Assembly: GCA_013151335.1 (NCBI GenBank)
Contig: JAADIJ010000102.1
Location: 1 to 41,252 of the forward strand
Length of the DNA stretch: 41,252 bases
Direction of reading: 5' to 3'
From: Alphaproteobacteria bacterium
Lineage (GTDB): Bacteria; Pseudomonadota; Alphaproteobacteria; Rhodobacterales; Rhodobacteraceae
Numbering within the stretch: position 1 is the stretch's first letter; each line of letters starts with the position of its first letter. Made by a program: the position numbers and the translations under genes. Below the pieces are notes generated by a model, which was given only the letters and a program-made list of their open reading frames with translations, was not told the origin of the DNA and did not search any database. This document shows positions 1-28,375 of the stretch, piece after piece.

Positions 1-705
1 ATAGAAATCCTGCTCGCCCACATAATAGGCTTTGTCATATGTCAGCGCATTGCCTTGTCCGTCCTTCAGACCATCGCGCGGCAGAACCATGATCGCGCCG
101 TTCATGCCGTGAACCACATGGTAGGGGATCATGTCGCCGCCCGGTGCGCAGTGATAGACAAACACGCCAGCTTTGATGGCGCGAAAACGCAGGACGCATT
201 GCTCGCCCGGCATGATATGTGTCAAGCCACCACCGCCAAGTGCGCCGGTTGATGCGTGGAAATCGATGTTGTGCTCAAAGCCATTCGTGGCAAGGCTTTT
301 CAGCGTCAGCTCGATATAATCGCCCTGATGGCACACGATCATCGGGCCGGGAACGGTTCCGTTATAAGTGAAGGCCCAGATGGTCGCACCGTCATCGTCG
401 ATCTCGATTTTCTTCTCCTCGATGACCATCTCAACCTCGATAATCTTGGGGCCACCCTTGGCAACCTGGTCATGTTTGGGAAAGAACGGAGGGGCCACCA
501 ATTCCTGTTTAACCCGAGGCAGGCTTGCAATATCAATGCCGTCGGTGGCACCACCGAGGGCCTCGACCGGGATCAGCACCGGGTTTGCTGCGGTAGGCGT
601 AGCCGCAAGGCCAGAGGCAGCAACTGCGGCCGACCCAACGGCAGCGGCGGTGAGGAAATTTCTGCGTTCCGGGCTTTCGGGGATGCTTTTCTTGAGATCG
701 AACAT
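1..705 (-). CDS. nirK: Copper-containing nitrite reductase NirK, N-terminal part (runs off window)
   Basis: Reduces nitrite to nitric oxide in the periplasm during denitrification. The first 235 codons are visible and the C-terminus lies beyond position 1. A Tat-type signal is seen at residues 13-35 ([10 protein letters not shown] then a small hydrophobic stretch), fitting export of a cofactor-loaded enzyme. Residues equivalent to the known copper ligands are present: type-1 H146, C187, H197 and M202; type-2 H151 and H186; the catalytic Asp is D149 in HNIDFH. The last type-2 His would lie outside the window. The loop between C187 and H197 is one residue longer than in the Alcaligenes-type enzyme, as in some other NirK classes. 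The start at 705 is preferred over the ATG at 720 because AAAGGA sits just ahead of it. An FNR/NNR-like box lies upstream. Confidence 0.95.
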
Positions 706-967: not shown

Positions 968-983
968 TGGCAGGGGTTGGGGG
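968..983. repeat. Distal att-like copy of the tRNA-Trp 3' end
   Basis: This 16-bp exact copy of 2158-2173 is in direct orientation. The flanking bases differ (T at 967 against C at 2157; A at 984 against G at 2174), so the identity ends sharply, as expected for a crossover core. Confidence 0.65.
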
Positions 984-984
984 A

Positions 985-996
985 CCCTGCGCAGGG
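985..996. repeat. Perfect 12-bp palindrome at island edge
   Basis: CCCTGCGCAGGG is fully self-complementary and begins two bases after the left 16-bp repeat. It could be a recombinase or regulator site or part of a hairpin; nothing further identifies it. Confidence 0.5.
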
Positions 997-1270
997 CCAT
1001 TTTTCGATCAGCCCGCTGGCGCAACAGGATCAGATTGAGGCAAGATTTGAGGCAAAAGGGCTGCATGTGACAGTCCGGCCTGCGGGTGTCACGGGTGTGG
1101 GCTCTCGCGGGTTGGTGGCGGCAGTGTCACAGGGGGAGGTTGGAGGTAATTCCGAAGGTAAATTTTGGCCCAGAGCCGTCATTTGAAGGTCACTGCCCCA
1201 ACCCCAATGGTCGGTTTCTATTTTCACCAAGCGCCACCTCACCGTTCTTCGTGGTTAAAGTTCAGGAACA

Positions 1271-1882
1271 TCAGCTGGTTCTGGCTTCGAGTAACCCTGT
1301 GAAAAGTCGACTACACCACTCCCGTCGTTGATCAACTAACTCTGCGTATCGTACGCATTCCCATGCAACTAGGTCTGCACAAATTTCTTCAACCGACATC
1401 ACATCATGGAGGCCTTTTGCCTCGATGACCTGCTCCCTACCTTCCGGGGTAATAGCGCCCCAAATGAGGATTGTACCATTTGTATCAATTTTCTTTCCAC
1501 CCACGTGAATTTCTTGGTCGGCCATTAGCTTTGCAGCCCTTAGAAAGGCATCAAACGCGGGCTTCTTGTGATGATCAAGTTGTGAACTGCGATCCAGAAC
1601 AAAGTACTTGAAGTTTTGGTACTCAATCTCGCATTTCATTTCGGTCACATAGATCTTGCTGCTGGCCCGATCTTTAAGTGTGAAATCTAGCGTGTAACCT
1701 CGGCCATTTCCATCAGATTTGATCGTCGGTCGGCCAAGGTTTTCGTATTGCGAATGCTCGTGCTCAGCCCATATTCCAACGATTTTCTCGGAAAAAACAC
1801 CAAATACTCTGGAAAGGAATTTTGACCGCTCTCTTTGTGCTGGGCAATCAGATTCGAAAATATTGCGAAAACTTTGGCTCAT
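1271..1882 (-). CDS. Hypothetical protein, possible PD-(D/E)XK-like fold, mini-island cargo
   Basis: I do not recognise this 203-residue protein. The start at 1882 is chosen because GGAGAAAG lies 5-6 bases before ATG; a longer reading would run back into the tRNA gene. It has no signal peptide or membrane segment. The stretch TLDFTLKD, about 17 residues and then VTEMKCE reads as D-x(n)-E-x-K on adjacent predicted strands, the minimal signature of PD-(D/E)XK nucleases. The C-terminal half is charged and probably helical. Base composition is clearly more AT-rich than the flanking genes, which suggests transfer. It is the only clear gene of the mini-island and is co-oriented with tRNA-Trp 275 bp upstream, so it might be transcribed by read-through. 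The nuclease assignment is inference only. Confidence 0.6.
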   Translation of the reverse strand: MSQSFRNIFESDCPAQRERSKFLSRVFGVFSEKIVGIWAEHEHSQYENLGRPTIKSDGNGRGYTLDFTLKDRASSKIYVTEMKCEIEYQNFKYFVLDRSSQLDHHKKPAFDAFLRAAKLMADQEIHVGGKKIDTNGTILIWGAITPEGREQVIEAKGLHDVMSVEEICADLVAWECVRYAELVDQRREWCSRLFTGLLEARTS

Positions 1883-2157
1883 GAAATCTTTCTCCAAAAT
1901 GTTGCTGCTTGAAGTCTCGATATTAACCGACGTGACTAAGCCGACATTGGCCTTGACGCAGAAAAACTGCAACAAGGGCTCAAAGCCGACTTGCGGCGTC
2001 GCGGCACGCCTCTCACCTTTTGCTGTAGCCCGTGGCCAAGTCGGTGAGGTGACTGCCAAGAGCCACGCCCACGGCACCCGACCAGCGAGGCCGCGCTCGA
2101 GGCAAGTTCGGTTCGTTTGCAACTGACCGGACGCTCGGACTATCGGTGAAACCACAC

Positions 2158-2233
2158 TGGCAGGGGTTGGGGGGTTCGAACCCACGACCTACGGTTTTGG
2201 AGACCGTCGCTCTACCAACTGAGCTAAACCCCT
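2158..2233 (-). tRNA. trnW: tRNA-Trp (CCA anticodon)
   Basis: On the minus strand the gene starts AGGGGTTTAGCTCAG and ends with an encoded CCA (2160-2158). The acceptor stem AGGGGTT pairs with AACCCCT with discriminator G. The anticodon arm ACGGT-CTCCAAA-ACCGT exposes CCA, which reads UGG, and the T-arm contains GGTTCGAACC. The 3' end serves as the apparent integration site of the adjacent mini-island. In many alphaproteobacteria this tRNA precedes secE-nusG, but those genes are not here. Confidence 0.97.
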
Positions 2234-2379: not shown

Positions 2380-3669
2380 TTAGACCAAGACCTCTAGAGG
2401 CTGTTGGTTGTGGACGTTGAACACGCGCTTATAGCGGGCGATTTCGTCAGTCGGACCCATCGCTTTGTTGGGATTGTCCGACAGTTTGACCGTGGGGTGG
2501 CCATTGGCGCTGACGGCTTTGCATACCAGTGAGAACGGGGCGAGGGCGTCGTCTTTGACCAAGCCGCGAAAGTCGTTTGTCATCAGGGTGCCCCAGCCAA
2601 ACCCTACATTGACGCGACCGGTAAACTGACGGCTGAGGGTCTCTATTTTATCCACATCCAGACCATCGGAGAAAATCACCAGCTTGGTTTTGGGGTCTTC
2701 GCCCTTGGCGCGCCACCAGTTAATCGCGGCCTCAGCCCCGGTGGCGGGATCCCCGCTGTCAACGCGAATTCCGGTCCAACTGGCGAGCCAATCGGGCGCG
2801 TGCTCCAGAAAACCCTCGGTGCCAAATGTATCCGGCAGGATGATCAGCAAATTACCGTCATGCTCTTTTTGCCAATGCTCCAGAACTTCGTAAGGGGCCG
2901 CCGCCAATTCGGTGTCGTTTTCGGCCAAAGCGGCATAGACCATGGGCAATTCATGGGCATTGGTGCCAATCGCCTCGACCTCGCGGCGCATGGCGATCAG
3001 GCAGTTGGAGGTGCCAGTGAACTTGTCACCAAGGCCCTCGATCATCGCCTCGACGCAATGGTTTTGCCACATGAAACCGTGGCGGCGCCGCGTGCCAAAA
3101 TCGGCGACACGCAGGCCGTCGATCTTGTTCAAACGCTCGATTTTCTCCCAAAGTTTAGTCAGAGCGCGCGCGTAAAGCACCTGCAATTCAAACCGCCCAA
3201 GCCGGGCGAGAACCCGACGCGAGCGCAGCTCCATGATGATCGACAGCGCTGGAATTTCCCACATCATCACCTCGGGCCACTTGCCCTCAAACGTCAACTC
3301 AAACTGGCCGTCGCGCTTTTCCAGATGGTAGGGTGGCAGGCGCAGGCCTTCGAACCACTCCATGAAATCGGGGCGGAACATGGCGCGTTTGCCGTAAAAC
3401 AGGTTGCCGCGCAGCCACGTGCTTTCGCCGCGCGACAGCGAGAGCGAGCGCACTTGGTCGAGTTGCTCGCGCAGCTCTCCCTCGTCGATCAGCTCGGCGA
3501 GGCGAATGGATTTGGTGCGGTTGATCAGGCTGAATGTAACGTCGGTATCGCGCCGATCCAGAAACACCGATTGCGCCATCAGCAACTTGTAAAAATCCGT
3601 ATCGATCAGCGATCGGATGATCGGATCGATTTTCCAGCGGTGATCGTAAACACGTTTTGCAATATCCAT
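2380..3669 (-). CDS. pncB: Nicotinate phosphoribosyltransferase
   Basis: Converts nicotinate and PRPP to nicotinate mononucleotide in the Preiss-Handler NAD salvage pathway. The 429-residue length is normal for the long bacterial PncB family. Visible family features are the N-terminal SLIDTDFYKLLMAQ, the TFGTRRRHG-like segment ADFGTRRRHGFMWQ around residue 195, GTSNCLIAM, and the phosphate-binding region IRVDSGDP followed by VIFSDGLDVDKI. ATG at 3669 is preceded by GGGGA about ten bases upstream. It lies 44 bp downstream of pncA on the same strand, so the two probably form an operon that recycles nicotinamide to NAD. Confidence 0.96.
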   Translation of the reverse strand: MDIAKRVYDHRWKIDPIIRSLIDTDFYKLLMAQSVFLDRRDTDVTFSLINRTKSIRLAELIDEGELREQLDQVRSLSLSRGESTWLRGNLFYGKRAMFRPDFMEWFEGLRLPPYHLEKRDGQFELTFEGKWPEVMMWEIPALSIIMELRSRRVLARLGRFELQVLYARALTKLWEKIERLNKIDGLRVADFGTRRRHGFMWQNHCVEAMIEGLGDKFTGTSNCLIAMRREVEAIGTNAHELPMVYAALAENDTELAAAPYEVLEHWQKEHDGNLLIILPDTFGTEGFLEHAPDWLASWTGIRVDSGDPATGAEAAINWWRAKGEDPKTKLVIFSDGLDVDKIETLSRQFTGRVNVGFGWGTLMTNDFRGLVKDDALAPFSLVCKAVSANGHPTVKLSDNPNKAMGPTDEIARYKRVFNVHNQQPLEVLV

Positions 3670-3713
3670 ACGGGTTTTTCCCCTAAGCGTGACGGCAGGT
3701 CAAGTTGCCAAAA

Positions 3714-4325
3714 TCACGCCGCCAAAATCACGCTGTAATCGAGCATTTCCTGACGTGCCGCCGCCAGCGAGCCGTCAAGATCAATCGCGCGGCATGCGCC
3801 TTCAAGCACGGTCACGCCAAAGCCAAGCTTGGCCCCATCGACCGCCGAGAAGCGCACGCAAAAGTCGGTGGCAAGCCCGACCATGACCAAATCAGTGACC
3901 CCGCGTTCGCGCAAATATCCGGCCAATCCGGTGGGGGTTTTGTGGTCGTTTTCAAAAAATGCCGAATAGCTGTCGATGGCCGCGCGAAACCCTTTGCGGA
4001 TGATCAGATCGGCGGGGTCGGTGGCAAGCCTCGTGTGAAACTCGGCCCCTTTGGTGCCTTGAACACAGTGGCGCGGCCATAAAACCTGCGCTCCATACGG
4101 CATTTGAATGGTCGAATAGGCCTCGCCATTGCGGTGATTATCGGCAAACGAGCTGTGGTCGGCGGGGTGCCAGTCTTGGGTAAAAACCCTAATCGCGAAG
4201 TGATCCGTCAGCGCGTTGATCCGCGCCAATATCCCGTCTCCGTCATCAACCGCCAGCGCCCCTGACGGACAAAAATCATTTTGGACATCAATGACGATCA
4301 AAGCGGTTGTATCGGGGTATTCCAT
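3714..4325 (-). CDS. pncA: Nicotinamidase
   Basis: Hydrolyses nicotinamide to nicotinate and ammonia, the substrate for the neighbouring PncB. The 203-residue protein is a complete isochorismatase-fold enzyme. The catalytic triad is visible as D13 (VIDVQNDF), K111 (IIRKGF) and C156 (ATDFCVRFSA). Metal-site residues D51 and H53 lie in TQDWHP, with H86 in WPRHC. ATG at 4325 is preceded by AAGGA at good spacing. It is the first gene of the likely pncA-pncB operon, and no regulatory site was recognised upstream. Confidence 0.96.
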   Translation of the reverse strand: MEYPDTTALIVIDVQNDFCPSGALAVDDGDGILARINALTDHFAIRVFTQDWHPADHSSFADNHRNGEAYSTIQMPYGAQVLWPRHCVQGTKGAEFHTRLATDPADLIIRKGFRAAIDSYSAFFENDHKTPTGLAGYLRERGVTDLVMVGLATDFCVRFSAVDGAKLGFGVTVLEGACRAIDLDGSLAAARQEMLDYSVILAA

Positions 4326-27517: not shown

Positions 27518-28243
27518 GTGCGTTATGGGCGGGCGATTCAGTGTGCCGAGGCCACAGTGGTTTCATCGGTTCTCTCTCAAGTCCGGTTTCGGTCCGGGCC
27601 CGCGCGCCGAATCGCTCCGACCAGAAAGCAGATATACGCGGTCATTACTGCCGCCGACAAAGCCAACAACCGCAGTTTTGCGCTCGGGATTATGCTGCAA
27701 TATGAACTGATCTTGCGCGCGGTAGATGTTCGCGGGCAGTGGTTGAAGTCCTATGCAAACGAAGGTGGGATCATTCGAGGTGGAACCCGCTGGCAGGATG
27801 GCCTGACTTGGGACATGGTGAGAGACGATCTGACCGGCTTTGAAAAGGTCGTGTCTAAAACCGCTCGATCAGCACCGGAGCCGAGGTTTTTCGATCTGGT
27901 CAACTTGCCGGAAATTCAGGAGCGACTTGCAGAGACACCCGCAGACAAGCGTGTCGGACCAGTAATCCTGTCCATGAAACGCGGCGGCATTCCTTTCACC
28001 CGCCAAGGCTGGTCGCAAGCGTGGGCCAGATACCGGAAGCTGGCGGGGATTCCAGAGGAGATATGGATGATGGACACGCGCGCTGGTGGCGTGACCGAAG
28101 CCAAGGAAATGGGTGCCGACCCTTGGGCGCTACGGGATGCGGCTCAACACGCAAATGTGGACACAACGAACCGATATGCCCGAGGGGATGCCTCTGGGAA
28201 AGTCGTCAAACTGCGCCAAAAAAGAACGTCTGGCGAACAGTGA
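27518..28243 (+). pseudogene. Tyrosine recombinase (phage-type integrase), N-terminally truncated
   Basis: Residues from about 33 on form the catalytic domain of a site-specific recombinase. Family-like residues are R67 (ELILRAVD), R188 in the MDTRAGG box that replaces the usual HxxR, H211 in AQHANVDTTNRYARG, and the nucleophile Y220. The N-terminal core-binding domain is missing: residues before about 33 resemble nothing, and the GTG start has no good ribosome-binding site. The gene points at tRNA-Arg and ends 56 bases before its encoded CCA, the usual place for an integrase that used that tRNA as attachment site. Probably inactive. Confidence 0.7.
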
Positions 28244-28298
28244 TCCAACTTTTTGATCCAACTCAAAAACAGGAGAACAGCTAAGTGTTTGATTTCAT

Positions 28299-28375
28299 TG
28301 GTGCACCGGGAGGGATTCGAACCCCCGGCCCCCTGATTCGTAGTCAGGTACTCTATCCAGCTGAGCTACCGGTGC
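28299..28375 (-). tRNA. tRNA-Arg (ACG anticodon)
   Basis: On the minus strand the gene starts GCACCGGTAGCTCAGC and ends with the encoded ACCA at 28302-28299. Acceptor GCACCGG pairs with CCGGTGC. The anticodon arm CCTGA-CTACGAA-TCAGG gives anticodon ACG (read as ICG after deamination), and GGTTCGAATCC forms the T-arm. Its 3' end faces the recombinase remnant. I found no second copy of this 3' end in the window. Confidence 0.97.

What the first reader, a model, noticed from the sequence alone, without database searches (positions are those of the whole stretch)
968..2173. Integrase-less 1.2 kb mini-island at the 3' end of tRNA-Trp
A 16-bp direct copy of the tRNA-Trp 3' end (968-983 and 2158-2173) brackets 1.2 kb holding one AT-richer gene and no recombinase. 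Elements this small with a single cargo gene are rarely described; it may be a satellite mobilised by a recombinase elsewhere, or a deletion relic. The gene is co-oriented with the tRNA and could ride on its promoter.
Basis: partly seen in the sequence, partly recalled or inferred. Interest (0 to 1): 0.7.

Follow-up and report, generated by a model that had tools for sequence, protein, structure and literature searches.

The report
Tiny integrase-less island beside tRNA-Trp gene
A 1.2 kb piece of apparently foreign DNA with a single nuclease-like gene is parked at the end of a transfer-RNA gene without the enzyme that would have put it there; stripped-down islands of this sort are already known, but the travelling gene it carries has not been characterised as far as the searches here show.

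Summary
The last 16 bases of tRNA-Trp occur exactly twice in the 3.29 Mb genome, at 968-983 and 2158-2173, bracketing 1.2 kb with one AT-richer gene and no recombinase. Among 128 tRNA-Trp loci, only this one and one congener (L068) have a second tRNA end longer than the opposite-strand control. The congener's insert is 3.5 kb, has other cargo, no integrase match, and a 36-bp repeat with one mismatch. An intact tyrosine integrase (L221) and a broken relative 59-61% identical to it (L164) lie directly 3' of tRNA-Trp in two other genomes. Best reading: an att-bounded insertion made by a tRNA-Trp tyrosine recombinase that was since lost or acted in trans, i.e. CIME-like. CIMEs of 1.2-13 kb and tRNA-end-bounded inserts from 330 bp with one gene are in print, so the class is not new. 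Fresher is the cargo: a 203-aa PD-(D/E)XK-fold protein without a significant family match, with relatives among phage genes, on a plasmid-like contig and in a Vibrio integron-type array. Empty site, mobility and nuclease activity remain unshown.

The parts
2158..2233 (-). tRNA-Trp gene, anticodon CCA; the attachment gene
   Evidence: ARAGORN, Rfam tRNA 68.7 bits
2158..2173 (-). proximal repeat copy: the tRNA's own 3' end, read as the copy brought by the element; followed by GTGT
   Evidence: origin inferred
968..983 (-). distal repeat copy, exact over 16 bp, read as the displaced original tRNA end; followed by ATGC as in congeners
   Evidence: origin inferred
1271..1882 (-). cargo gene, 203-aa PD-(D/E)XK-fold protein
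   Evidence: relatives; alignment; model and fold comparison
1883..2157 (.). non-coding end next to the tRNA, 275 bp, 57.5% GC
984..1270 (.). non-coding far end, 287 bp, 56.4% GC, no remnant of a mobile gene found

Best explanation
It is an att-bounded, integrase-less genomic island of the CIME-like sort. A tyrosine recombinase that targets the 3' end of tRNA-Trp joined an incoming attP, which carried the last 16 bases of the gene, to the chromosomal tRNA gene. The incoming copy rebuilt the tRNA (2158-2173) and the original end was displaced to 968-983. The element has no recombinase now, because it was lost by deletion or because it was supplied in trans all along. It should excise or move only when a tRNA-Trp recombinase enters the cell. 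Its one gene encodes a PD-(D/E)XK-fold protein, most likely a DNA-cutting enzyme with a restriction or anti-phage role. Shown: the repeat and its uniqueness, no recombinase gene, a congener with a comparable insert and other cargo, integrases beside tRNA-Trp elsewhere in the family, the predicted fold with invariant D, E and K. Inferred: the recombination event and its direction, mobility, nuclease activity, defence role.
For: Repeat unique in the genome and above controls. L068, same genus: 36-bp repeat with one mismatch starting 12 bases before the tRNA end, bracketing 3.5 kb with other cargo. Of 7 congener loci without an insert, 7 have C as fourth base after the tRNA; both distal copies have C, both proximal copies T. 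Integrases directly 3' of tRNA-Trp: L221 intact, L164 broken and 59-61% identical to it, L191 a 37-residue match. Cargo of lower GC than eight window genes and absent from 100 of 100 other relatives.
Against: No empty site: congeners do not share the flanks. The window's contig ends inside the gene left of the island, so a larger tandem structure cannot be excluded. No recombinase of this genome could be tied to tRNA-Trp: the nearest relative of the L221 integrase is about 32-42% identical, in two pieces, beside tRNA-Lys. No remnant of an integrase or other mobile gene in the ends. The trailer comparison was made after seeing the data and is small.
Confidence: 0.8

Rival explanations
1. Within the best reading, strict deletion relic: an ICE, IME or phage sat in tRNA-Trp and lost everything but its att sites and one cargo gene (a CIME proper); immobile unless another element integrates beside it.
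For: CIMEs outnumber intact elements where counted (PMC7563491); a broken integrase beside tRNA-Trp in L164 shows decay at this site in the family; no tRNA-Trp recombinase identified in the genome.
Against: No remnant of integration, transfer or phage genes in the 287 and 275 bp ends.
Confidence: 0.5
2. Within the best reading, trans-mobilised satellite: the 1.2 kb is a complete minimal unit (two att ends and a gene) moved by recombinases of other elements.
For: Clean ends; two different cargoes at the same site in one genus; recombinases for tRNA-Trp exist in the family.
Against: No second copy of the unit: only the source in 295 family genomes beyond two short matches and none in plasmids or phages apart from a 68-bp intergenic match. 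No cognate recombinase in the genome.
Confidence: 0.3
3. No recombinase event: the second tRNA end arose by chance, or by a local duplication or a rearrangement with no mobile element involved.
For: The gene family travels on other vehicles, so its arrival need not involve the tRNA. In two Paracoccus genomes it lies on the 5' side of tRNA-Trp with no repeat.
Against: Controls; the copy ends exactly at the tRNA end; a second case in the same genus.
Confidence: 0.05
4. The insert is an integron-type cassette or another single-gene transposable unit that came to lie beside the tRNA.
For: A relative is in an integron-type array in Vibrio sinaloensis.
Against: No attC-like fold at the gene's end: 93 of 100 shuffles fold as well; boundaries coincide with the tRNA end.
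Confidence: 0.03

Closest known systems
CIMEs (cis-mobilizable elements) of Streptococcus, PMC7563491 and PMC5704250 (passages read)
   Same: att repeats kept on both sides, no integrase or transfer genes, cargo kept; sizes from 1.2 kb; a tRNA-Lys 3' end is one of the published sites
   Different: Those were found in tandem with ICEs or IMEs or known to derive from them; here no such neighbour or ancestor is known
Additive flexible genomic islands at tRNA-Lys in Ca. Methylopumilus, PMC10872708 (section 13 part 1 read)
   Same: Repeats of the last bases of a tRNA mark inserts of variable size (330 bp to 42 kb, 1 to 63 genes), mostly of unknown function
   Different: There the repeats occur in varying number; here there are two copies in the genome
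tRNA-targeted gene cassettes of Ca. Actinomarinales, PMC7771536 (section 9 read)
   Different: They extend one large envelope-sugar island
Islands at tRNA-Trp in Shewanella (CGI48), PMC8978831 (passages read)
   Same: tRNA-Trp as attachment gene
   Different: 48 kb, own integrase, at the 5' end of the gene; excision shown
Tycheposons, as summarised in PMC10872708 (the original paper was not read)
   Same: Cargo elements at tRNA genes
   Different: 4-200 kb with a tyrosine recombinase

Membership tests
CIME | attachment repeats kept on both sides | tested here: met
CIME | no genes for integration, excision or transfer | tested here: met
CIME | derives by deletion from an ICE or IME | tested here: inconclusive
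   no remnant in the ends; no larger relative of the insert found
CIME | can move in cis after another element integrates beside it | not testable with these tools
   needs an assay
Additive flexible island at a tRNA | inserts of different content at the same tRNA in related genomes, bounded by repeats of its end | tested here: met
   window and L068, 2 of 9 genus loci examined, different cargo; different species, not strains
Additive flexible island at a tRNA | repeats in varying number, as published | tested here: inconclusive
   two exact copies in this genome; strains not available
Tycheposon | tyrosine recombinase gene and a length of 4-200 kb | tested here: not met
   1.2 kb without recombinase
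Integron cassette | attC site behind the gene | tested here: not met
   no structured element: z 1.32, 93 of 100 shuffles fold as well; a fold test, not a dedicated attC search
PD-(D/E)XK superfamily (cargo protein) | restriction-endonuclease-like fold | tested here: inconclusive
   model pLDDT 87.2, pTM 0.85; VIA-align best Z 8.3 (AF1548), then XisH-family 6.7 and 6.5, FokI 6.2; Foldseek best E 0.019, none at 0.001
PD-(D/E)XK superfamily (cargo protein) | acidic residue, then E-x-K | tested here: met
   D66, E81, K83 invariant in 13 of 13 aligned members; reading them as the motif is mine
PD-(D/E)XK superfamily (cargo protein) | cleaves nucleic acid | not testable with these tools
   needs an assay

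The most novel reading that the evidence does not exclude
A lone defence-nuclease gene is carried as a true one-gene cassette that visiting tRNA-Trp recombinases insert and remove as a unit, so that the tRNA end works as an integron-like docking slot open to unrelated cargo; the same gene family also rides among phage genes, on a small plasmid and in a Vibrio integron-type array, so one cargo is handed between at least four kinds of vehicle.
Probability: 0.15. Interest if true: 0.6.

Novelty: new member of a known kind. Interest (0 to 1): 0.3.

Why it matters
It documents inserts without integrases at tRNA-Trp in an alphaproteobacterial genus, with different cargo at the same site in two species, and names a recombinase type (L221, L164) with which trans mobilisation of such inserts could be tested. 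The cargo points to a horizontally spread nuclease-fold family without a significant match in the family libraries searched, a fair candidate for a one-gene restriction or anti-phage function.

Tried and rejected
Integron cassette: no attC-like fold behind the gene. Structured RNA in 700-2400: only the tRNA matches Rfam at E 0.1. A phage source of the att core: the 16-mer occurs in 8 viral contigs; ARAGORN finds no tRNA-Trp in the 8 loci and none matches the integrase queries at 1e-5; read as chance. Empty site: the left flank matches one congener (G002, 71% over 558 bases), where it lies near two tRNA-Asp genes; the genes right of the island are not found in the 8 congener tRNA-Trp loci. Far end of the insert in 295 family genomes: besides the source, two matches of about 30 bases, in stretches without tRNA genes. 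ORF 977-1186 plus: no match in Pfam, PHROGs or plasmids. Cargo protein: no match in plasmids or phages; PDB sequences, one match at E 0.92 and none with the profile. Weak matches among 13 family members (DUF4422 E 0.0022 in 3, Imm59 0.02 in 2, LEF-3 0.023 in 2, CARF_PDDEXK 0.02 in 2, others weaker) were not used; cut-offs for members other than the window's are not shown there. tRNA-Ser in L056: no copy of 12 bases or more of its 3' half in the 7.3 kb behind it. Paracoccus L052 and L060: the gene lies 3.3-3.4 kb on the 5' side of tRNA-Trp, and no copy of the tRNA end with fewer than 4 mismatches was found. Viral fold library: no match at E 0.001. First integrase pass over 69 loci at 1e-6: none; the second, over 128 loci at 1e-4, found six. 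Its 23 queries were the longest open frame in each own-genome locus, not checked one by one, so it may miss integrases; a repeat with the L221 protein found only L221 and L164.

Full report
What is there. tRNA-Trp lies at 2158-2233 on the minus strand. Its last 16 bases recur at 968-983 in the same orientation; over 19 bases the two copies differ at one. Between them lie 1,174 bases with one gene that belongs to a protein family, 1271-1882 minus, 203 aa from an ATG at 1882. A longer open frame begins inside the tRNA, but relatives have ATG or GTG at the position aligned with that ATG (I cut several rows at the match start, so this is weak support).

Is it more than chance? The 16-mer has two exact matches in the 3.29 Mb genome, both here; at up to 2 mismatches there are 9, and the reversed pattern gives 3. 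In 2,000 shuffles of the downstream sequence the longest copy anchored at the tRNA end was 12 bases, once. I surveyed 128 tRNA-Trp loci: the window, 8 of the 9 other genomes of the genus (the ninth, G002, 83% complete, showed no tRNA-Trp) and 119 of the 211 other genomes with a match, chosen from the listed rows; many rows near contig ends were left out. One more fetched locus was dropped as a repeat. Downstream stretches have a median of 13 kb; 122 of 128 reach 5 kb. Same-strand copies anchored at the 3' end: 16 bases in the window, 12 in L068, at most 10 in the others; opposite-strand control at most 10.

The second case. In L068 (G006, same genus) the copy reaches past the tRNA: 36 bases with one mismatch, the first 12 inside the tRNA gene. 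Start to start the copies are 3,517 bp apart; the stretch has 52.2% GC, a 726-aa protein with PKD domains, a 117-aa frame without a Pfam match, and no integrase match. The proximal ends of both inserts are identical over 20 bases, the tRNA's last 16 plus GTGT.

Direction. In the 7 congener loci without an insert (L067, L069-L074) the four bases after the tRNA are GTGC in 5, ATGC in 1 and GTAC in 1: C in fourth place in 7 of 7. Both distal copies have C (ATGC in the window, GTGC in L068), both proximal copies T (GTGT). That fits the distal copy being the displaced chromosomal end. It was seen after the fact and is small.

Who could have inserted it? Integrase-like matches at 1e-4 fall in 6 of 128 stretches; three lie within about 0.7 kb of the tRNA: L221, L164 and L191. 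L221 is an intact 365-aa tyrosine integrase reading towards the tRNA. L164 holds a relative of it, 59-61% identical over its better pieces, broken over three aligned pieces. L191 is a match of 37 residues. The other three (L136, L212, L117) lie 2.5 to 6.5 kb away. So tRNA-Trp is used as an integration site in this family, though rarely. In the window's own genome the nearest relatives of the L221 integrase are two pieces, 32% and 42% identical, on contig C31 beside tRNA-Lys, and a 27% match on C99. The genome has 23 matches to the phage-integrase family, 21 over the cut-off; none could be tied to tRNA-Trp.

The cargo. The window's protein has no significant match: best are Pfam Imm59 at E 0.1 (13.5 bits, cut-off 26.9) and a PHROG at 0.041; none in PADLOC or NCBIfam. 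Relatives: 0 of 100 other relatives; 1 of 389 other genomes of the order (L141, identical in the gene to L059); 13 loci in the GTDB-species collection at 41-59% identity, two of them partial; 2 viral contigs, one of which, by its length of 17,417 and the match, is very likely the L058 contig. The model (pLDDT 87.2, pTM 0.85) aligns with proteins of the restriction-endonuclease-like fold: by VIA-align AF1548 Z 8.3, XisH-family proteins 6.7 and 6.5, FokI 6.2; by Foldseek FokI at E 0.019, none at 0.001. The tool warns that Z under 8 is common. What persuades me is that many of the listed rows are nucleases of that fold (their fold recalled) and that D66, E81 and K83 are invariant in 13 of 13. A DNA-cutting, probably restriction or defence, role is inference.

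Vehicles. In L058 and L065 the neighbours match phage terminase, head-protease or minor-tail families. L055 is a 3,998-bp contig with replication-initiation-like and mobilisation-like proteins, both weak matches. In L063 (Vibrio sinaloensis) the gene at 3353-3949 lies between copies of repeats that recur about ten times through an array of small genes on one strand; I read it, by eye, as an integron array with attC sites. In L056 it lies 0.7 kb behind tRNA-Ser without a repeat of that tRNA's end. In L056 and L064 a helix-turn-helix gene lies divergently beside it. The spread suits a transferred cargo gene but is no direct evidence on the tRNA-Trp insertion.

Mechanism and limits. I hold attP x attB recombination by a tyrosine recombinase at the tRNA-Trp 3' end most likely (0.8), and within that prefer a relic (0.5) to a unit moved in trans (0.3): CIMEs are common where counted and no cognate recombinase was found here, but the ends hold no remnant. 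The empty site was not shown: congeners do not share the flanks, and the window starts at a contig end inside a gene that by eye is a copper nitrite reductase. Transcription from the tRNA promoter is open.

What is known. PMC7563491 (passages): CIMEs with cargo of 1.2 to 13 kb, microCIMEs of 130-220 bp, and, cited there, 215 CIMEs at a tRNA-Lys gene in 303 S. agalactiae genomes. PMC5704250 (passages): definition of the CIME. PMC10872708 (section 13 part 1; passages): additive islands of 330 bp to 42 kb, 1 to 63 genes, with repeats of the last 20 bases of tRNA-Lys. PMC7771536 (section 9; passages): cassettes at tRNAs with a tell-tale repeat. PMC3146451, PMC8978831 and PMC9897764 (passages): islands at ssrA, at tRNA-Trp, and partial tRNA genes left by islands. 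So the structure is a new member of a known kind. Two word searches aimed at this case (10 and 8 rows seen) listed no title on integrase-less islands at tRNA-Trp in Rhodobacteraceae; that proves no absence.

Noticed in passing
window 27518-28375: A 241-aa frame matching the C-terminal part of phage integrases (24.3 bits, below the 27.1 cut-off) lies just 3' of tRNA-Arg (28299-28375 minus): probably a decayed island at a second tRNA. No copy of the tRNA's 3' end was found nearby.
   Followed up: partly
L068 14136-17694: A 3.5 kb insert at tRNA-Trp of a congener, bounded by a 36-bp repeat with one mismatch, with a 726-aa PKD-domain protein and no integrase match.
   Followed up: yes
L063 3212-4091: A relative of the cargo gene lies between attC-like repeats in an array of small genes on one strand in Vibrio sinaloensis.
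   Followed up: partly
L221 1700-2797; L164: Intact and broken members of one tyrosine integrase type directly 3' of tRNA-Trp in two Rhodobacterales-type genomes; candidate helpers for tRNA-Trp islands.
   Followed up: partly
L224 and L227 (G000:C31 6978-7987): The window's genome has an L221-like integrase in two separate frames beside tRNA-Lys.
   Followed up: no
window 1-157 and L080: The first 157 bases of the window match the start of contig C33 at 94%: perhaps a second copy of the nitrite-reductase-like gene that broke the assembly.
   Followed up: no
window 1938-2005: 68 bases between tRNA and cargo gene match an unannotated stretch of a Tritonibacter plasmid at 81%; part of the same stretch matches another contig of this genome over 28 bases. 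Perhaps a dispersed intergenic repeat.
   Followed up: partly
L052 333-4403; L060 591-4418: In two Paracoccus species the cargo gene lies 3.3-3.4 kb on the 5' side of tRNA-Trp, without a repeat; in L060 it is shortened at the start and follows what by eye is an EF-Tu gene. Unexplained.
   Followed up: partly
window 1196-1205: A 10-base inverted exact copy of part of the att core (CCCCAACCCC) lies inside the insert.
   Followed up: no
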